DNA of 64,000 bases, taken from Thermoflexus sp. Lineage in GTDB: Bacteria > Chloroflexota > Anaerolineae > Aggregatilineales > Aggregatilineaceae. The notes under the pieces are model-generated. The model searched no databases and was not told the DNA's origin. It saw only the letters and a program-made list of their open reading frames with translations. Below, piece after piece: positions 2,278 to 13,968 of this stretch. The translations under genes were made by a program, and so were the position numbers. Location of the stretch: the NCBI GenBank assembly GCA_020724465.1, contig DYGX01000006.1:1-64000 (forward strand). The letters run 5' to 3'. Position 1 is the first letter of the stretch; each line of letters opens with the position of its first letter.

Positions 2278-3885
2278 TTAACCTCCCAGCATCGAGACGA
2301 TCGGCTTGACGCCCGACTCGATCATCGGCGCCATGACCTTCGGATAGACGCCCAGCAGCACCAGCCAGAAGATCAGGATCCCCAGCGCGATCTTGTCGTA
2401 GACGGTGATGCGCGAGACCGCCGGGAAACGTTCTTCATCGAACTCGCCGAAGAAGACTTGTCCGACCACGCGCAGCACGTAGGCCGCCGTGATGATGATG
2501 CCCAGCGCGGCCACGATGGCGATCGCGCCGTAGTAGTTGAAGCTATCGGTCGGCCAGGTTGCGATCGGCTCTGTGACAGGGCCGTGCCACAGCCCGACGA
2601 AGATCGGGAACTCCGCCACAAAGCCGCTCAGCCCTGGCATGCCCATGCTGACGAAGCCGCCGACGATGAAGGCCACCGCCACCAGCGGCAGCTTTTGGAC
2701 GAACCCGCCCAGGCTGGGGATGTCGCGCGTGTGCGCCCGGTCGTAGACCATGCCGACGCAGGCGAAGAAGAGCGCCGTCATCACACCGTGGCTAAACATC
2801 TGCAGGCCCGCGCCGGTCATGCCGGTGACGTTCATCGTCGCGAAGCCCATGCTCACCAGCCCCATGTGGCTGACCGAGCTGAAGCCGATCACATATTTGA
2901 AGTCGCGCTGGCGCATGGCGATCAGCGCGCCGTAGACGACGTTGATCAGCGTCAGGAAGATGATCCAGGGCAGGTGCGCGCGCGCGCCATCCGGTAGAAG
3001 CTGGACGCCGACGCGCAGCGCCGCAAACGCGCCGAGCTTCATCAACACCCCCGCGTGGATCATCGAGACGGCCGTCGGCGCAGCGACGTGACCGTCCGGG
3101 CTCCAGTTGTGGAACGGCCAGACGCCCGCCAGCACGCCGAAGCCGATGAAGATGGCCGGGAACCACAGCCGGGCGGTCGAGACGCCCGTCCAGTCCGCGA
3201 AGGGCTGGTCGAAGACTCCCGCCTGCGCGGCGGCGTGCAGCGCGCGGAAGTCGAAGCTGTAGTCGCCGGTGCCGGTCGCCGCGCCCGCCTTGAAGTACAG
3301 CACCAGCAGGCCGACCAGCGCCACCACCGAGCCAACCAGGATGTAGAGCGTCAGCTTCATGGCGGCGTATTCGCGCGTCTTGGCCCACCCCCAGATGACG
3401 ATCAGGAAGTACATCGGGAAGATCGCCAGCTCGTAGAAGAAGAACAGCACGAACAGATCGACCGCCACGAAGACCCCGAACACGCCTGCCACCAGCAGCA
3501 GGAAGAACGCCATGAACTCGCGCGTGCGGTCTTCGATCCCCCACGAGATCAGCACGCCGGTGAAGCCCGCCAGCGCGGTCAGCAGCACCATCGGCGCGGC
3601 GATGCCATCGACGCCCAGGTGCCAGCTAATGCCGACCGACTCGATCCACTTGACGTGGTCCTCGAAGGCGAAGTAGACCTCGCCCTGTTCGGCGGCGGCA
3701 TTGGCCGCGTTGACGTCGTAGCCGAAGAACACGCCCAGCGCCAGCAGCAGCACGACGCCGGTTGTCACGGCAGCGATGATCCGCGCCGCGTCTTTTTGCT
3801 CTTTGGGGAGCAGCAGGATGACAACCGCGCCCAGCACCGGCACGAGCAGGATGCCTGTCAACACTCCGCTGAACGTAATCACCAT
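2278..3885 (-). CDS. nuoM: NADH:quinone oxidoreductase subunit M, second copy
   Basis: A 535-residue antiporter-like subunit of the complex I membrane arm. Motifs include FFFYELAIFPMYFL (the key glutamate of TM5), WPFHNWSPDGHVAAPT, and the discontinuous-helix segment around FKYVIGFSSVSHMG. It is one of two adjacent NuoM-type genes and is closer to ordinary NuoM length (E. coli about 509). It follows the other nuoM after 62 nt and precedes nuoN by 1 nt. Together with the partner gene and the long lateral helix of NuoL it suggests an enlarged proton-pumping arm. The paralogues are clearly divergent, so this is not a recent duplication. Confidence 0.93.
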   Translation of the reverse strand: MVITFSGVLTGILLVPVLGAVVILLLPKEQKDAARIIAAVTTGVVLLLALGVFFGYDVNAANAAAEQGEVYFAFEDHVKWIESVGISWHLGVDGIAAPMVLLTALAGFTGVLISWGIEDRTREFMAFFLLLVAGVFGVFVAVDLFVLFFFYELAIFPMYFLIVIWGWAKTREYAAMKLTLYILVGSVVALVGLLVLYFKAGAATGTGDYSFDFRALHAAAQAGVFDQPFADWTGVSTARLWFPAIFIGFGVLAGVWPFHNWSPDGHVAAPTAVSMIHAGVLMKLGAFAALRVGVQLLPDGARAHLPWIIFLTLINVVYGALIAMRQRDFKYVIGFSSVSHMGLVSMGFATMNVTGMTGAGLQMFSHGVMTALFFACVGMVYDRAHTRDIPSLGGFVQKLPLVAVAFIVGGFVSMGMPGLSGFVAEFPIFVGLWHGPVTEPIATWPTDSFNYYGAIAIVAALGIIITAAYVLRVVGQVFFGEFDEERFPAVSRITVYDKIALGILIFWLVLLGVYPKVMAPMIESGVKPIVSMLGG

Positions 3886-3947: not shown

Positions 3948-5672
3948 TTAGCCGCCCAGAAAACGGACCACGCCATCATTAATCACATCCAGGATGAGGC
4001 GGGGATACAGCCCCAGGACCAGCATCAGCACCGCCAGCGGAGCCAGCGCCAGGATCTCGCGCCGGTCAATTTCCAGCCTGTGATGCGTCCGGTCGTACTC
4101 GGCCCACTCGGTGTTGTACGGGCCGTGCAGCACCTTCTGGATCGCCTTGAGCACGTAGATGCCGGTCACCAGCAGCCCTACCATGCTCAACAGCACATAG
4201 GGCATGTAGAACTCCACCGACCCGGCGACCACCAGATATTCGCCCACAAAGCCGTTCAGCCCCGGCAGGCCCAGCGAGGCCATGCTCACGAAAATGAGCA
4301 GCGCGCCGTAGATCGGGATGATGTCCCACAAACCGCCGAAGCGCCTCAGGTCCCGCGTGTGCGTCTTGCGATAGAGCGCGCCGACCAGCAGGAACATCCC
4401 CGCGCTGGACAGGCCGTGATTGAACATCTGGAGCACCGCGCCGTTGAGCGCGATGGTCGCTTCGTGCCGGTCCGCCTCGAAGCGTTCCTCGGTGTACAGC
4501 GTGTCCACCTTCTCGCGCGCCAGCCGCTGAGACCGCATCTCTTCCGAGGACAAGTCGATCCCGGCGGCGTTGGCGTGCAACACCCAATCGCTGTTGGCGC
4601 GCGCCCAGACGTTGCCGTACATCAGCGCGGCGACCGCCAGCCCCAGCACCACAAAGCCCATGTGGTTCACCGAGGAATAGGCCACCAGCCGTTTGAAGTC
4701 ATCCTGGCCCCAGGCCGCCAGCGCGCCCAGGATGATCCCAAGCACCGCCAGAAAGCCGAGGATGCTCGCCAGGTTATAGTCCATGCTGAACAGCGTGCGC
4801 TGCACCACCCACTCGCGCGGGAAGAGCGGGATCGCCAGCCGCAGGAACCCGTAGGCACCCAGCTTGAGCAGCACGCCCGCCAGCAGCATCGAGCCGGCGG
4901 TTGGGGCCTCGGTGTGCGCGTCTGGCAACCACGTGTGGAACGGCCAGGCCGGGATCTTGATCAGGAACGCGACCGCGAACCCCAGCAGCGCGTAGTATTT
5001 GGCGATGTCCACGTTCACACCCAGGATCGTGTTCGCCTGGCCGGTAAAGGCCGGCCACTCGCGCAGCATGACCGGGATGTCGAAGCTGCCCACCGACAGG
5101 CCGATCAACTGCGTGGCGAGCAGCAGGCCCAGCGACCCGGCCATGGTGTAGAGGAAGAACTTGTTCGCTGCGTAGCGTCGGTTCTCCCCGCCCCACAGGT
5201 AGATCAGGAAGTACATCGGGACAAGGCCGATCTCCCAGAACAGGAAGAAGATCACCATGTCCAGCGCCACGAACACGCCCAGCATCCCGGTTTCAAGAAA
5301 CAGGAACAGCGCCATATGCACCGGGACGCGATCGGTGATCTCAAATGAGATCAGGATCGCCAGCGGGACCAGCAGAGCGGTCAGCAGCACCATCGTCGCG
5401 CTCAGGCCATCCACGCCCACATGCCACGACGCGTTAAGCTGCGGGAACCACTCGACCTGGTACTCGTACGCCCATTCGTCCGGCCCCGGCGGGTTGGTCT
5501 GCACGTTCACGAAAACCACGATCGCCATCACCAGCACGACCAGGCTGACTCCCAGCGCCAGCCAGCGCGCAAGCTGCGCCTTGTGGCCCGGCAGCGCGAA
5601 GACGACGATCGCCCCCAGCAGCGGCAGCAGAGTCAGCGTCGTGAGAAAGTCTCCGGGAATGAAATCGAACAT
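3948..5672 (-). CDS. nuoM: NADH:quinone oxidoreductase subunit M, first copy, with hydrophilic insertion
   Basis: A 574-residue antiporter-like subunit. Typical elements are LFWEIGLVPMYFLIYLWGG (TM5 glutamate), PAWPFHTWLPDAHTEAPT, and DDFKRLVAYSSVNHMGFV. It is longer than usual because about 60 mostly charged residues (4443-4622) sit between the helix ending VAALMYG and the conserved LNGAVLQMFNHGLS, where other NuoM proteins have a short loop. It lies 18 nt downstream of nuoL. The assignment to NuoM is firm; the role of the insertion is unknown, and it could contact a neighbouring antiporter subunit or a peripheral partner. Confidence 0.93.
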   Translation of the reverse strand: MFDFIPGDFLTTLTLLPLLGAIVVFALPGHKAQLARWLALGVSLVVLVMAIVVFVNVQTNPPGPDEWAYEYQVEWFPQLNASWHVGVDGLSATMVLLTALLVPLAILISFEITDRVPVHMALFLFLETGMLGVFVALDMVIFFLFWEIGLVPMYFLIYLWGGENRRYAANKFFLYTMAGSLGLLLATQLIGLSVGSFDIPVMLREWPAFTGQANTILGVNVDIAKYYALLGFAVAFLIKIPAWPFHTWLPDAHTEAPTAGSMLLAGVLLKLGAYGFLRLAIPLFPREWVVQRTLFSMDYNLASILGFLAVLGIILGALAAWGQDDFKRLVAYSSVNHMGFVVLGLAVAALMYGNVWARANSDWVLHANAAGIDLSSEEMRSQRLAREKVDTLYTEERFEADRHEATIALNGAVLQMFNHGLSSAGMFLLVGALYRKTHTRDLRRFGGLWDIIPIYGALLIFVSMASLGLPGLNGFVGEYLVVAGSVEFYMPYVLLSMVGLLVTGIYVLKAIQKVLHGPYNTEWAEYDRTHHRLEIDRREILALAPLAVLMLVLGLYPRLILDVINDGVVRFLGG

Positions 5673-5690: not shown

Positions 5691-7964
5691 TTAGCGAACC
5701 TGGAGCAAGAACAGCGTGCCAATCGCCAGCAGCCCCAGCGTGACGAACAGCAAATATTGCTGGATTCGCCCGGTCTGCACCTGGCGGAACCAAGCGGCAA
5801 AGTCGCCGATGGCGCGCGGGATGCCATCCCCCACGCCGTCGATCACCACGGTATTGAAGCGTTTGAACGCCTCGCCGAGCCAGATGAACGTCTCGGCGAT
5901 CGTCTCCAGCACGCCGTCGATCGTCTCTTTGTCGATGGCCTGGATGACGATATGCGTGGCAAACCATTCCGCCGGCTGCACCAGATAGCGGCGATAGAGC
6001 AGGTCGATGTAGAAGCGGTTCTGCAGCGCGCGCCAGACGCCTGCGCCCAGCGCCCGCTCAGTCGGATCGACCGCGCCCTCGGCCAGCGGCCGCCGCCCGT
6101 ACACCCACCAGCCCAGGCCCAGACCGCCGAGCGCGATCACGATGCTGAGCAGAACCGGCAGGCCGTCCAGGTCGAACACCGGCGGGTGCTCCAATAGAGT
6201 CCCGCTCAAGAACTCGTGCAGCGGGTTATCGAGCGCGCCCAGCAGCGGGAAGTCCGTGTGGACGCCGATAAATCCGGCGAAGACGGCGAAGAAAGCCAGC
6301 ACGATGAGCGGGAACTCCATCTGGCGTGCGGCGACCTCGTCCTCGCGGCGAACCGGCTCGGTTTCCAGCCGGCGCGCCTTGCCCCAGCGCGTGTTCGCCC
6401 ACCAGTTGCGCAGCGAGCCAAGCCCCGCGTAGCGGGCCGCCGCGCTGCGCGGCGCCCCCCAGAATGTCAGGAACCACATCCGCGCGGTGTAGAACGCGGT
6501 CAGCAGCGCCGCCAGCACCAGCATCACCAGCACGAACAGCGCCAGCGGGAAGCCCTCGCCCGTCCCGTGCCAGGCCTCGGCAATGATCTCGTCCTTCGAC
6601 CAGAACCCGGCCGTGATCAGCGGGAAGCCCGCCAGCGAAAGCCCGCCGATCGCCATCGTGATGGCGGTCACCGGGATGCGATCCAGCAGCCCGCCCATGC
6701 GCCGCACGTCGTTGGGCGGCGCCACGTAGTCCATCACCAGCCCGTCCGGCTCCGGCACTTCCTCGTGCGGGTGGCCGTGTTCGTGGGCGTGGTGCTCGCC
6801 GTGCTCCATCGCATGAATGACCACGCCGGACGCCATGAACAACAGCGCCTTGAAAAACGCGTGATTGATCAGGTGGAACGCCGCCGCGACCCACGCGCCG
6901 ATCCCCAGCGCGGCCACCATATAGCCGAGCTGGCTGACCGTCGAATAGGCCAGGATGCGCTTGATGTCGTTCTGGCCGACGGCCAGCACCGCCGCGAACA
7001 ACGCGGTGAAGCCGCCCACCAGCCCCATCATCACCATCGGGGCGCTGAAATCGCCGTGGTGGAAGTCCGCCCCGGCAGAAAGCAGCGGGAACATGCGCAC
7101 CAGCATGTACACGCCGGCGGAAACCATCGTCGCGGCGTGGATCATCGCGCTGACGGGTGTCGGGCCTTCCATCGCGTCCGGCAGCCAGACATGCAGTGGG
7201 AACTGCGAGCTTTTGCCGATCGTGCCGATCACCAGCAGGATGCCGACCACCGCCGCCACGCTGCCGCCGAACAGCACCGCCGGCGACAGCTCCGGATCGC
7301 TCAGGTGGTGCAGCATCTCTTCGTTGTAGAGAATGTCGCGGAAGTTGAGCGTCCCCGCCTCGATGAACAGATAGCCGATGCCCACCAGCATCAGCACATC
7401 CGCCACACGCGTCGTCATAAACGCCTTGACGCCCGCCTGCATCGCGCTCTTCTTGTGGAACCAGAACCCGATCAGCAGATACGAGCAGAGGCCCATCACT
7501 TCCCAGCCGACAAACAGCATCAGCAGGTTGTCGGCTAGCACCAGCGTCAGCATCGCCCCGGCAAAGAGCGAGATGAAGGCAAAGAAGCGCGTGTTGTGCG
7601 GATCATCGCGCATGTAGCCGAGCGAGTAGATGAAAATGAGCAGGCACGTCAGCGGGACCATCAGCAGCATGTACGCCGTCAGCGGGTCCACCAGCACGCC
7701 CATTCGGAAGGTGGCAGTCCCCAGCGTCAGCCAGTCGATAGTGCTGCCGAAGACTTCCCTACCCAATTCGACATCGGAAGCCCAGACGACCTTGACGAAC
7801 TCGATCAGGCTGAGCACCCAGGCGATCACGATGCCGCTCAGGGCCACGATGTGGCTGAGGGTCCGGCTGCGCGAGGTGAACAGCACGATGATCAGAAAGC
7901 TGAGCAGCGGAAAGAACAGGATCAGCCAGGGCAGGTAGTCGGCGTCAAACCAGTTGATATCCAT
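5691..7964 (-). CDS. nuoL: NADH:quinone oxidoreductase subunit L with extended lateral helix
   Basis: A 757-residue distal pumping subunit of complex I (E. coli about 613). Conserved parts are GWEVMGLCSYLLIGFWF, SQFPLHVWLPDAMEGPTPVS, and NDIKRILAYSTVSQLGYM. Three extras explain the length: a His-rich loop (6759-6809), an Arg-rich loop after the WFLTFWGA helix, and a lengthened segment between the penultimate and last membrane helices. That segment (residues about 665-735) is about 71 residues, against roughly 40 in E. coli-type NuoL from memory. It contains two IDGV-starting repeats 26 residues apart. A longer lateral helix would be expected if it spans an additional NuoM. The gene is preceded by nuoK. 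Confidence 0.95.
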   Translation of the reverse strand: MDINWFDADYLPWLILFFPLLSFLIIVLFTSRSRTLSHIVALSGIVIAWVLSLIEFVKVVWASDVELGREVFGSTIDWLTLGTATFRMGVLVDPLTAYMLLMVPLTCLLIFIYSLGYMRDDPHNTRFFAFISLFAGAMLTLVLADNLLMLFVGWEVMGLCSYLLIGFWFHKKSAMQAGVKAFMTTRVADVLMLVGIGYLFIEAGTLNFRDILYNEEMLHHLSDPELSPAVLFGGSVAAVVGILLVIGTIGKSSQFPLHVWLPDAMEGPTPVSAMIHAATMVSAGVYMLVRMFPLLSAGADFHHGDFSAPMVMMGLVGGFTALFAAVLAVGQNDIKRILAYSTVSQLGYMVAALGIGAWVAAAFHLINHAFFKALLFMASGVVIHAMEHGEHHAHEHGHPHEEVPEPDGLVMDYVAPPNDVRRMGGLLDRIPVTAITMAIGGLSLAGFPLITAGFWSKDEIIAEAWHGTGEGFPLALFVLVMLVLAALLTAFYTARMWFLTFWGAPRSAAARYAGLGSLRNWWANTRWGKARRLETEPVRREDEVAARQMEFPLIVLAFFAVFAGFIGVHTDFPLLGALDNPLHEFLSGTLLEHPPVFDLDGLPVLLSIVIALGGLGLGWWVYGRRPLAEGAVDPTERALGAGVWRALQNRFYIDLLYRRYLVQPAEWFATHIVIQAIDKETIDGVLETIAETFIWLGEAFKRFNTVVIDGVGDGIPRAIGDFAAWFRQVQTGRIQQYLLFVTLGLLAIGTLFLLQVR

Positions 7965-8894: not shown

Positions 8895-10106
8895 CTAATC
8901 GCTTGCGCCCGCCGGCGCGGCATCCGCCACGGATCCAGGCTCGGACACCGGCTGTGCCGCGCGCCGCGCCGCGATGCGGGCGCGTTCGCGCCGTCCTTCC
9001 TCGCGCAGAAGCATGCCCACGCCCGCGATCATCAGAATGTTTGCTGCCAGCAGCACCAGCGAGGGCACCAGCGCGTCGCCAGCGCTGTTGATCGAGTCCG
9101 TGCCGGGCAGGATCTTCCACAGAAAGGCCACGACGATCAGGTTCACCAGGCTGAGCGGCACCAGGAATTTCCAGCCCAGATCCAGGATCTGGTCCACGCG
9201 CACGCGGGGCAGCGTCATGCGGATCCACATCACAGCAAAATAGCCAACGAAGCTTTTGAGCAGCAGATACACGAAACCGAGCGCCGGCACGTCTTCCGCA
9301 AAGGGGCCGCGCCAGCCGCCCAGGAACAGCACCGCGATCAGCAGACCCACCGTGAAAGCGTGCAGAAACTCGCCGACATAGAACAACCCAAACTTGAAGC
9401 CGGAATACTCGGTCTGGTACCCGGCCACCAACTCGGACTCTGCTTCGAGGATGTCAAACGGCGCCCGCCCCAGCTCGGCCATGCTGGCGATGATAAAGAT
9501 CAGCACGGTCAGCGGGGCGGCAATCAGGTACATCACGTGCTGGCTGCGCACGATGTCCTGCGTGCTCATCGACCCGGCCAGCACCACCGGGACCAGCATT
9601 GCCAGCGCCATCGGCACCTCGTAGCTGATCAACTGCGCGACCGCGCGAAACGCGCCGAGCAGCGCGAATTTGTTGTTGCTGCTCCAGCCCGCCATCAGGA
9701 TCGCGATCGAGCCGAGCGACCCGACGGCGAACAGGTACAGCACGCCAATGCTCAGGTCCACACCGATCAACGTCGGGGTGAACGGGATCACGACCCAGAT
9801 CAGCAGCACGGACATGACCGAGAGGATGGGCGCCAGGTTGAACACCCAGCGATCGACCCCCTGGTGCATGATGTCTTCTTTGAGGATGATCTTGATCGCG
9901 TCGGCCACGGTCTGTGCCAGCCCAAACGGGCCGGCGCGGTTCGGACCGAGGCGGTCCTGGAAGCGCGCGGCGACCTTGCGCTCGGCCCAGATGCAGAAGA
10001 AGGTCCACAGCAATCCGACCGTCGCCAGGGCAAACACGCCCAGCGTCTTGGCGATCAGCACGGCCAGACCGCGCGAGAGACCGATGTCAATCAGAGAATC
10101 TGTCAT
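8895..10106 (-). CDS. nuoH: NADH:quinone oxidoreductase subunit H
   Basis: A 403-residue subunit that helps form the quinone chamber of complex I. Signature stretches are AERKVAARFQDRLGPNRAGP near the N-terminus and the acidic loop APFDILEAESELVAGYQTEY. The ATG at 10106 is chosen over the in-frame start at 10148 because GGAG lies 8 nt upstream and the protein then begins at the first amphipathic helix. A 40-residue Arg/Ala-rich tail follows the last membrane helix. It comes directly after nuoA; the B, C, D and I genes that often lie between A and H are absent. Confidence 0.95.
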   Translation of the reverse strand: MTDSLIDIGLSRGLAVLIAKTLGVFALATVGLLWTFFCIWAERKVAARFQDRLGPNRAGPFGLAQTVADAIKIILKEDIMHQGVDRWVFNLAPILSVMSVLLIWVVIPFTPTLIGVDLSIGVLYLFAVGSLGSIAILMAGWSSNNKFALLGAFRAVAQLISYEVPMALAMLVPVVLAGSMSTQDIVRSQHVMYLIAAPLTVLIFIIASMAELGRAPFDILEAESELVAGYQTEYSGFKFGLFYVGEFLHAFTVGLLIAVLFLGGWRGPFAEDVPALGFVYLLLKSFVGYFAVMWIRMTLPRVRVDQILDLGWKFLVPLSLVNLIVVAFLWKILPGTDSINSAGDALVPSLVLLAANILMIAGVGMLLREEGRRERARIAARRAAQPVSEPGSVADAAPAGASD

Positions 10107-10190
10107 GCGCACATCTCCAGCGAGATCCCACTTGGGTGCGTCGGGCATGCAAAGGCCGGTAGGCCTTTGCGATCCTACCGGCCCGACCGG

Positions 10191-10553
10191 CTAGCTTGAC
10201 CACTCCAACGCCCGTTTGCGCCACGTATAGAGCAGCGCCACAACGAGCAGGACGATAAACACGACCACCTCGAACAGCGCGAACAGCCCCAGCTTGTTAT
10301 AGGCCAGCGCCCAGGGGAATAGGAACACAATCTCGACGTCAAACAGCAGGAACACCAGCGCGTAAATGTAATACTGAGCGCGGAACTGGACCCAGGTGTT
10401 CCCCGTCGTCTCGACGCCGCACTCGTAGACTTGCTGTTTGATCGGGTTGGGCCGCTTGGGGGCCAGGAACTTCGCGAGAATGATCGGGGTGGCGGGCAGC
10501 AGCCAGGCAAGCGCCAGGAACAACCCGACAAAAATCCATTCGTTGACTGTCAT
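10191..10553 (-). CDS. nuoA: NADH:quinone oxidoreductase subunit A
   Basis: A 120-residue, three-helix subunit of complex I and first gene of the operon. The quinone-site loop motif YECGVETTG, with its conserved cysteine, and the second-helix acidic motif LLFDVEIVFLFPWA are diagnostic. The ATG at 10553 is preferred because GGAGG precedes it by 12 nt; an upstream in-frame start at 10616 would add an unlikely Cys-rich peptide. An 84-nt gap separates it from nuoH. Peripheral-arm genes (nuoB, C, D, E, F, G, I) are not in this window and must lie elsewhere, or be replaced. Confidence 0.95.
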   Translation of the reverse strand: MTVNEWIFVGLFLALAWLLPATPIILAKFLAPKRPNPIKQQVYECGVETTGNTWVQFRAQYYIYALVFLLFDVEIVFLFPWALAYNKLGLFALFEVVVFIVLLVVALLYTWRKRALEWSS

Positions 10554-10625
10554 GAGCCGTACATCCTCCAGCCAGACCTGGACGGGTTCCGCGTAACAAT
10601 CACATGCAAGGGGCAACAGGTGATA

Positions 10626-10654
10626 AGTATATCAGCCGCCTATGGGGCGGGCAA
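10626..10654 (-). promoter_or_regulatory. Candidate sigma70-type promoter of the nuo operon
   Basis: On the minus strand, TTGCCC (10649-10654) is followed by a 17-nt spacer and TATACT (10626-10631). The expected transcript start is about 65 nt upstream of the nuoA ATG. The architecture matches the TTGCCG-17-TACACT promoter proposed for rsmH at 48373. Confidence 0.6.
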
Positions 10655-10751
10655 TGCATATCGCGCGCCACCGTGCGCCTCATTCTAGCATCTGCCGGCG
10701 GCGAACACAAAACCGGGCAGTGGGCTGGGCGGCTGGCGCGCCGCGCTGCGC

Positions 10752-10757
10752 TATAAT
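10752..10757 (+). promoter_or_regulatory. -10 element TATAAT before femX-like gene
   Basis: A perfect TATAAT lies 40 nt upstream of the ATG at 10798 in very GC-rich surroundings. No recognisable -35 is present 17 nt upstream. Confidence 0.5.
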
Positions 10758-10797
10758 CGGCGCCAGAGAACCAGGCACACCGAAAGCGACACCCGCC

Positions 10798-11823
10798 ATG
10801 ACCTATCGCACCGTCTCGCCCGAACCTGCCGCCTGGGATGCCTTTGTCGAGGGTCACCCCCGCGCGCACCTGCTCCAGCTTAGCGCCTGGGGCGCGCTGA
10901 AGACCGCCTTCGGCTGGCAGGCGGAGCGCGTGGCCCTGGCCCGCGAAGATGGATCGCTGGCTGCCGGCGTGCAGATCCTCTACCGCCCGTTGCCGCTGGG
11001 CCTGGGGCGGCTGGCCTACGTGCCCTACGGCCCGCTGGTCGATTGGGACGACGACGCGCAGGTGCGCGCCCTGACCGCCGCCGTCGACCGGGCGGCCCGG
11101 CGGCGCCGCGCCGCGCTGCTGAAGATCGAGCCGGGCTTCGGCCTCGACGGAGTCGACTTCACGCGCTGGGGCTTCCGCCTCAGCCCGCAAACCGTCCAGC
11201 CGCCGCGCACCTATCAAATCGACCTGTCCGGGGGCGAAGACGCGATTCTGGCGCGCATGAACCAGGGCACGCGCCGCAACATCCGCAAGAGCGAGCGCTA
11301 CGAGGTGGCGATCCGCGAGGGCACCCGCGCCGATGTGGACAGCTTCAACGCCCTGCTGCACGAAACCGGCGCGCGCGCCGCGTTTGGCGTCCACGCGCCG
11401 CGCTATTACGAGGTCGTCTACGACCGCTTCATTCCCCGCTATGGCGTGTTGCTGCTCGGCAGCTACGCCGGGCAGGACCTGGCGGGGGTCATGGTCTTTG
11501 CGCTGGCGAAGCAGGCGTGGTATCTGTACGGGGCCTCATCCGACCGCGAGCGGCATCGGATGGCGTCGTATGGCGTGCAGTGGGCGGGCATCCGCTGGGC
11601 GATGGCGCGCGGCGCGGCGTGTTACGACATGGTCGGCGTGCCGGACGAGGACACCGGCACGCTCGAAGCGCAGTTCGCCGCGCGCGACGACGGGCTGTGG
11701 GGCGTCTATCGCTTCAAACGCGGGTGGGGCGGCCAGGTCGTGCGCAGTGCCGGGGCGTGGGACCGCGTCTACAACCGACCGATCTACGCGCTCTACCGCT
11801 TTGCCGTCGCGCGGGCCGGCTGA
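10798..11823 (+). CDS. FemX/MurM-like peptidoglycan aminoacyltransferase, copy 1
   Basis: A 341-residue FemAB-superfamily protein with two GNAT-like folds. Family hallmarks are the N-terminal HLLQLSAWGALKTAFGW, the central QGTRRNIRKSERY with the substrate-binding RxxxRKS-like run, and WYLYGASSDRERHRM followed by YDMVGVPDED. Family members add amino acids from aminoacyl-tRNA to the lipid II stem peptide, or act on small-molecule amines. The ATG at 10798 gives the conserved N-terminus; an upstream in-frame start would overlap the -10 element. A second copy lies 2 kb downstream, and cell-wall genes occur later in the window. A role in peptidoglycan cross-bridges is likely but not proven. Confidence 0.8.
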   Translation: MTYRTVSPEPAAWDAFVEGHPRAHLLQLSAWGALKTAFGWQAERVALAREDGSLAAGVQILYRPLPLGLGRLAYVPYGPLVDWDDDAQVRALTAAVDRAARRRRAALLKIEPGFGLDGVDFTRWGFRLSPQTVQPPRTYQIDLSGGEDAILARMNQGTRRNIRKSERYEVAIREGTRADVDSFNALLHETGARAAFGVHAPRYYEVVYDRFIPRYGVLLLGSYAGQDLAGVMVFALAKQAWYLYGASSDRERHRMASYGVQWAGIRWAMARGAACYDMVGVPDEDTGTLEAQFAARDDGLWGVYRFKRGWGGQVVRSAGAWDRVYNRPIYALYRFAVARAG

Positions 11824-12811: not shown

Positions 12812-12833
12812 GGCCGCTGTTTTTGCAGCGGCC
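12812..12833 (+). terminator. Hairpin after the GlsB-like gene
   Basis: GGCCGCTG (12812-12819) pairs perfectly with CAGCGGCC (12826-12833) around a T-rich loop. Only a short T-rich tail follows, so it is a weak intrinsic terminator at best. Confidence 0.4.
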
Positions 12834-12873
12834 TGTTTGCGTGCAAAGCCGCTCACGCTGGAAAGTAGGCCCA

Positions 12874-13968
12874 ATGCGCATCTCCGAAAGCACCTCGTCC
12901 GCAGCCTGGAACGCCGCGCTGCGATCCCTGCCGGCGGCGCACGTGCTGCAAACCTGGGAATGGGGCGAGTTCAAGCGGCGCGAGACGGGCTGGCTGCCCG
13001 AGCGTCTGGTGTTCGACGACGGCGGGCAGCCGGTCGCCGCCGCCTCGGTCCTGACCCGGCGCGCTGGCCCCCTGTGCGTGATGTATGTGCCGAAAGGCCC
13101 GGCCCTCGACTATACGAACCCGGCACGCGTCGCCGCCGTGCTCGATTACCTCGAAGGGCTGGCCCGCCAGCGCCGCGCCATCTGGCTGAAGATCGACCCG
13201 GACGTGATCGCCGGGACCGGCATCCCCGGTGGCAGCGACCCCGCTCGCCCGCCGCACGACGACCCAACCGGCCAACACCTGATCGCCGAGTTGCAGCGGC
13301 GCGGGTGGCGCTTCAGCGCCTCGCAGGTCCAGTTCCGCAACACGATCACGCTCGACCTGACGCAGAGCGAGGACGAGCTGCTGGCCGACATGAGCCAGAG
13401 CACCCGCCGCAAGATCCGCCTGGGTCCCAAGCACGGCGTCACCGTGCGCCAGGCGTCCGGCACGGCCGATCTGGAGACGCTCTACCGCCTCTACACCATC
13501 ACCGGCGCGCGCCAGGGCTTCTTGATCCGCCCGCTGGACTACTACCGCGAGGCGTGGGCGCGCTTCATCGAGGCCGGGCTGGCGCAGGCGTTCCTCGCGG
13601 AATGGGAAGGCACCCCGCTGGCCGGGCTGGTCCTGTTCCACTTTGGCCCCAAGGCGTGGTATTTCTACGGCATGAGCAGCAACCAGGAGCGCCAGCGCAT
13701 GCCGACCTACCTGCTCCAGTGGGAAGCGATCCGCTGGGCGAAGGCGCGCGGCTACCCGACCTACGACTTCTGGGGCGCGCCGGACACATTCAGCGAGGAC
13801 GACCCGATGTGGGGAGTCTACCGCTTCAAAGACGGCTTCGGCGGGACGGTCGTGCGGCACATCGGCGCGTGGGATTACGTGCCCAACGCCGCCCTGTACA
13901 CCCTCTACGAGCGCCTCATGCCGCGCATCCTGGGCGTGCTGCGGCGGGCGGCGCGTCGCGGGGCTTGA
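12874..13968 (+). CDS. FemX/MurM-like peptidoglycan aminoacyltransferase, copy 2
   Basis: A 364-residue FemAB-superfamily protein paralogous to the product at 10798-11823. Shared landmarks are the N-terminal HVLQTWEWGEFKRRETGW, the middle SQSTRRKIRLGPKHGV, WYFYGMSSNQERQRM, and YDFWGAPDTFSEDDPMWG. The ATG at 12874 is chosen because the upstream in-frame extension (from 12823) lacks conservation and GGAAAGTAGG lies just before this start. It likely adds amino acids to the lipid II peptide. Two tandemly placed, divergent copies could add successive bridge residues, as in other bacteria with branched stems. Confidence 0.85.
   Translation: MRISESTSSAAWNAALRSLPAAHVLQTWEWGEFKRRETGWLPERLVFDDGGQPVAAASVLTRRAGPLCVMYVPKGPALDYTNPARVAAVLDYLEGLARQRRAIWLKIDPDVIAGTGIPGGSDPARPPHDDPTGQHLIAELQRRGWRFSASQVQFRNTITLDLTQSEDELLADMSQSTRRKIRLGPKHGVTVRQASGTADLETLYRLYTITGARQGFLIRPLDYYREAWARFIEAGLAQAFLAEWEGTPLAGLVLFHFGPKAWYFYGMSSNQERQRMPTYLLQWEAIRWAKARGYPTYDFWGAPDTFSEDDPMWGVYRFKDGFGGTVVRHIGAWDYVPNAALYTLYERLMPRILGVLRRAARRGA

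What the first reader, a model, noticed from the sequence alone, without database searches (positions are those of the whole stretch)
5760..5972. NuoL lateral helix lengthened by a 26-residue internal repeat
Between the last two membrane helices, NuoL has about 71 residues instead of roughly 40 in common NuoL proteins. IDGV-starting segments occur at residues 682 and 708, exactly 26 apart, with similar I...I/F..W spacing. The lateral helix braces the antiporter subunits, so a repeat-length extension fits one additional NuoM in the arm. This links the nuoM duplication next door to a structural adaptation.
Basis: partly seen in the sequence, partly recalled or inferred. Interest (0 to 1): 0.7.

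Follow-up and report, generated by a model that had tools for sequence, protein, structure and literature searches.

The report
Four-pump complex I, longer bracing helix
This is a bacterial respiratory complex I with one extra pump-like subunit and a bracing helix lengthened by one 26-residue unit, a design already published as "2M complex I"; the comparison also shows that the lengthened helix exists without the extra subunit, and that the extra subunit lacks a lysine known to be needed for proton pumping in E. coli.

Summary
NuoL (5691-7964, minus strand, 757 aa) has 88 residues between two conserved anchors where ordinary NuoL has 60-62. The extra length carries an internal repeat of offset 26 (IDGV at 682 and 708), and AlphaFold2 models it inside one helix (650-730). 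The operon is nuoA-H-J-K-L-M1-M2-N.

This is the published 2M complex I (Chadwick et al. 2018, read only through papers citing it), including the insertion of about 26 residues and its proposed purpose. I sampled operons in Chloroflexota, Nitrospirota and others. All 41 LMMN operons have the long helix; 68 LMN operons have the short one and 14 LMN operons a long one. M1 and M2 are not a local duplicate: they are 41% identical and lie in different deep clades.

Seen in passing and perhaps new: M2 lacks the TM7 lysine (E. coli NuoM K234) in 41 of 41 2M operons, while M1 keeps it in 41 of 41. That makes the assumed fifth pumped proton testable. No paper I could search mentions it, but the original paper was not available.

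The parts
5691..7964 (-). nuoL, 757 aa, with lengthened lateral helix
   Evidence: NCBIfam NF005141 and TIGR01974 above cut-off; alignment
5775..6017 (-). predicted continuous lateral helix, NuoL residues 650-730
   Evidence: AlphaFold2 monomer model, DSSP; low confidence in its C-terminal part
5844..5921 (-). repeat copy A, residues 682-707 (IDGVLETIAETF...)
   Evidence: self-comparison, offset 26
5766..5843 (-). repeat copy B, residues 708-733 (IDGVGDGIPRAI...)
   Evidence: self-comparison, offset 26
3948..5672 (-). nuoM1, 574 aa (L-proximal NuoM); TM7 Lys K239 present, codon 4956-4958 AAG
   Evidence: TIGR01972
2278..3885 (-). nuoM2, 535 aa (N-proximal NuoM); TM7 position is Leu252, codon 3130-3132 CTG
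   Evidence: TIGR01972
756..2276 (-). nuoN, 506 aa
   Evidence: TIGR01770
7995..8303 (-). nuoK
   Evidence: NF004322
8310..8885 (-). nuoJ
   Evidence: NuoJ models are the only strong matches, below their cut-offs
8895..10148 (-). nuoH
   Evidence: NF004741 above cut-off
10191..10616 (-). nuoA
   Evidence: best match NF005839, below cut-off

Best explanation
The locus is the membrane-arm operon of a Chloroflexota-type 2M complex I. The arm is inferred to hold four antiporter-like subunits in the order N-M2-M1-L. NuoL's lateral helix, which lies along the arm and whose last transmembrane helix anchors its far end, is longer by one 26-residue unit, about 39 angstroms at 1.5 angstroms per residue. 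That is roughly the width of one added antiporter-like subunit (established knowledge, not measured here), so the helix still reaches the proximal end. Shown here: gene order, insert length, internal repeat, helical prediction, and the association with LMMN operons. Inferred: assembly into one complex and the bracing role. Whether the added NuoM pumps an extra proton is open, because M2 lacks the TM7 lysine.
For: All 41 LMMN operons have the long helix (86-90 residues) and none the short one; LMN operons are 68 short and 14 long (Fisher p about 6e-21 in a non-random sample). The insert is modelled inside one helix on an otherwise standard NuoL fold (best Z 45). A second, fused NuoCD-like frame (651 aa) lies on another contig, C2, as described for Chloroflexi 2M operons (PMC7117926). 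E. coli work shows the helix matters: truncation removes activity, and a 6-7 residue insert between L and M cuts pumping (PMC3274701).
Against: Fourteen LMN operons also carry a long helix, so length alone does not imply a fourth subunit. The model is a monomer with low confidence along the helix. No assembled complex or proton stoichiometry was examined. The operon sample was chosen partly by similarity to the window, not at random.
Confidence: 0.87

Rival explanations
1. The long helix is an older, independent feature of one NuoL lineage. The second NuoM was recruited later into arms that already tolerated a longer helix.
For: Four Chloroflexota LMN operons have long repeat-bearing NuoL, an M1-type NuoM and their own NuoN clade (98*), and G011 is basal in the NuoL tree (99*). 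L162 in Chloroflexota shows a clear 26-residue duplication with one NuoM. Further cases: L077, L088, L098, L176, L177.
Against: In the NuoL tree, long-helix LMN members also branch next to 2M members (95*), so loss of M2 fits as well. All LMMN operons have long helices, so the two are clearly tied.
Confidence: 0.35
2. Long-helix LMN complexes are reductions of 2M complexes that lost M2, with the long helix as a relic.
For: Their sole NuoM is M1-type in the four Chloroflexota cases, and G184 groups with Anaerolineae 2M in the NuoL tree.
Against: Their NuoN proteins form one separate clade (98*), which does not look like several recent losses. L162, L088 and L098 lie outside the Chloroflexota 2M clades.
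Confidence: 0.35
3. The insert is unrelated to subunit number, for example a lineage-specific helix variant with some other contact.
For: C53-type NuoLs (L009, L131, L150, L151) have an insert of about 28 residues without the repeat in LMN operons, also modelled mostly as helix (650-702, then 710-763).
Against: It does not explain 41 of 41 LMMN operons with a 26-28 residue excess and none short.
Confidence: 0.08

Closest known systems
2M complex I (Chadwick et al. 2018, ISME J 12:2668; described in PMC7117926, PMC6606698, PMC9040806)
   Same: Second NuoM between NuoL and NuoN; NuoL lengthened by an insertion in the amphipathic helix; in Chloroflexi, order nuoL-M1-M2-N with nuoBCDI elsewhere and a fused nuoCD.
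   Different: No difference in kind found. The loss of the M2 TM7 lysine and the internal 26-residue repeat are not mentioned in the citing papers read; the original paper was not available.
Complex_I_3 of Ca. Manganitrophaceae (PMC9040806)
   Same: A 26-residue insert in the lateral helix linked to extra antiporter subunits; NuoL inserts were also found in their other complex I copies, as in my long-helix LMN cases.
   Different: There the distal subunits are two MrpD-like proteins, giving five in all; here NuoL is kept and there are four.
Canonical 14-subunit complex I (E. coli, T. thermophilus)
   Same: Same subunit families and NuoL fold.
   Different: One NuoM and a lateral helix shorter by about 26 residues.

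Membership tests
2M complex I | Two NuoM genes between nuoL and nuoN | tested here: met
   L 5694-7964, M1 3951-5672, M2 2281-3885, N 759-2276, all minus strand
2M complex I | Insertion of about 26 residues in the NuoL lateral helix | tested here: met
   88 versus 60-62 residues between anchors; modelled as helix 650-730
2M complex I | Chloroflexi arrangement: nuoLM1M2N, peripheral-arm genes elsewhere, fused nuoCD | tested here: met
   Gene order in the window; NuoD-family match in a 651-aa frame on contig C2, not near the window operon. nuoB and nuoI positions not checked
2M complex I | Both NuoMs assemble in one complex | not testable with these tools
   needs purification or a structure
2M complex I | One extra proton pumped per cycle | not testable with these tools
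   hypothesis in the literature; M2 lacks the TM7 Lys, which weakens it
canonical complex I | Single NuoM and short lateral helix | tested here: not met

The most novel reading that the evidence does not exclude
The added, N-proximal NuoM (M2) is not a standard proton pump. It is a separate NuoM type that has lost the TM7 gating lysine and serves as a spacer or charge relay, or pumps by another route. On this reading 2M complexes would not simply move a fifth proton per cycle, and the long helix marks arm length rather than pump number.
Probability: 0.3. Interest if true: 0.7.

Novelty: new member of a known kind. Interest (0 to 1): 0.36.

Why it matters
The architecture itself is known, so this locus mainly adds a clear Chloroflexota example. 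What matters more is what the comparison exposed. The long helix is found in all LMMN operons sampled but also in complexes with one NuoM. And the NuoM that is assumed to add a pumped proton lacks, in every 2M complex sampled, a lysine whose mutation abolishes function in E. coli. Energy budgets built on five protons per cycle should be checked by experiment.

Tried and rejected
Local tandem duplication of nuoM: rejected, M1 and M2 are 40.7% identical and in different supported clades. DNA-level recent repeat in nuoL: rejected, the copies are 39/78 identical. A spare NuoM elsewhere rescuing the long-helix LMN cases: not found in G088, G011, G128, G303; G154 has three further antiporter-like genes with only weak similarity to Nuo subunits. 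L077, L088 and G184 have other partial clusters and stay undecided. The original Chadwick paper was not held. A multi-subunit model could not be made; only single chains can be predicted. TM8 Lys loss in four M2 proteins (L107, L108, L109, L111) looks like a one-residue shift of the lysine, so I do not count it as a loss. Whether long-helix LMN complexes precede or follow M2 could not be settled: the NuoL and NuoN trees differ.

Full report
Observation. The ORF at 5691-7964 (minus) is NuoL, 757 aa. IDGV is at 682 and 708, spacing 26. Measured between FY(651) and YL(738), this NuoL has 88 residues, against 60-62 in ordinary NuoL. The repeat at offset 26 is reached by 2 of 5000 shuffles at that offset, but by 273 of 5000 when any offset may win, so one sequence alone is weak evidence. 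Across 32 long-helix NuoLs, 26 have their best offset (of 20-32) at 26, and several LMN relatives show 12-14 identities. The repeat is therefore real but old (DNA identity 39/78).

Structure. AlphaFold2 on 42 aligned NuoLs gives mean pLDDT 82, with one helix from 650 to 730 and then the last membrane helix 734-756. Confidence along the helix is only 51-78, as expected for a helix modelled without its partners. The rest matches solved NuoL chains (best Z 45).

Surroundings. The operon reads A-H-J-K-L-M1-M2-N on the minus strand. The genome has a second complex I on contig C53 with one L, one M and one N. NuoD-family matches lie on C53, on C2 (a 651-aa frame, compatible with fused NuoCD) and on C10; NuoF-family matches lie on C25 and C53.

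Known system. Papers in the library describe 2M complex I of Chadwick et al. 2018: an extra NuoM, a lengthened NuoL, and in Chloroflexi the order nuoL-M1-M2-N with nuoBCDI apart and a fused nuoCD (PMC7117926; PMC6606698). The original paper was not available.

Co-occurrence test. I read operons from 63 loci of GTDB genomes, 60 regions of Chloroflexota genomes and 16 regions of a Nitrospirota set. LMMN operons: 41 long, 0 short. LMN operons: 68 short, 14 long. The sample was chosen partly by similarity to the window and contains near relatives, so the Fisher value is only descriptive. Of the 14 long LMN cases, ten carry the ID repeat (L110, L119, L120, L121, L077, L088, L098, L162, L176, L177). 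Four are of the C53 type (L009, L131, L150, L151), whose insert has no repeat but is also modelled mostly as helix, 650-702 and 710-763. PF00361 scans of whole genomes found only the expected L, M and N genes, without a spare complex-I NuoM, in G088, G011, G128 and G303. G154 has one LMN set plus three genes of weak similarity. The strict claim that a long helix implies two NuoMs is therefore false; the converse held in every operon sampled.

Ancestry. In the NuoM tree all M2 proteins form one clade (98*), whose nearest relatives are NuoMs of some Chloroflexota LMN complexes. M1 proteins form another clade together with the NuoM of four long-helix LMN complexes (100* for the joint group). M1 and M2 of the window are 40.7% identical. 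Nitrospira M2 falls with Chloroflexota M2 and three M2-like sole NuoMs in a 22-row set (100*). The NuoL tree without the helix columns unites 2M and four long-helix LMN NuoLs (99*). The NuoN tree puts those four LMN NuoNs in their own clade (98*). Whether the long helix preceded M2 or outlived its loss is undecided.

Lysine. The TM7 lysine (E. coli NuoM K234) is K in all M1 (33 Chloroflexota, 8 Nitrospira) and absent in all M2 (L 31, T 2, I 8). An alignment-free motif count gives the same for the first 29, and L and N of these operons keep it wherever the motif is found. TM5 Glu and TM12 Glu are kept in M2. In E. coli, mutations of K234 cause loss of function (PMC3046159). HycC of formate hydrogenlyase naturally has Leu there (PMC5061711). 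Three LMN complexes have only an M2-like NuoM with Leu (L087, L129, L141), which argues against calling it simply dead. My reading: M2 is a distinct NuoM type whose pumping is unproven.

Verdict. The finding is correct anatomy and a published idea. It is ordinary as a 2M complex I. The exceptions and the M2 lysine are the parts worth following.

Noticed in passing
window 3130-3132 (M2 Leu252) versus 4956-4958 (M1 Lys239): The N-proximal NuoM lacks the TM7 lysine in 41 of 41 2M operons of Chloroflexota and Nitrospirota; the other NuoM keeps it in all 41.
   Followed up: yes
L087, L129, L141: Complexes with one NuoM in which that sole NuoM is M2-like and also lacks the TM7 lysine.
   Followed up: partly
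L009:11699-13993 (G000 contig C53), L131, L150, L151: A second type of long-helix NuoL in LMN operons of Anaerolineae, with an FWHD-type insert of about 28 residues and no repeat.
   Followed up: partly
L162 (G154): A fresh-looking 26-residue duplication in NuoL (YVIDGLVNG.../YVVDGLVNG...) in a 1 Mb Chloroflexota genome with a single complex-I NuoM.
   Followed up: partly
window 10642-11823 (+) and 12823-13968 (+): Two related ORFs next to the nuo operon that resemble FemAB-like aminoacyltransferases by eye; not tested.
   Followed up: no
L107, L108, L109, L111 (M2): TM8 lysine appears moved by one residue (GVLKATGAY instead of GVLMKLGAF).
   Followed up: no
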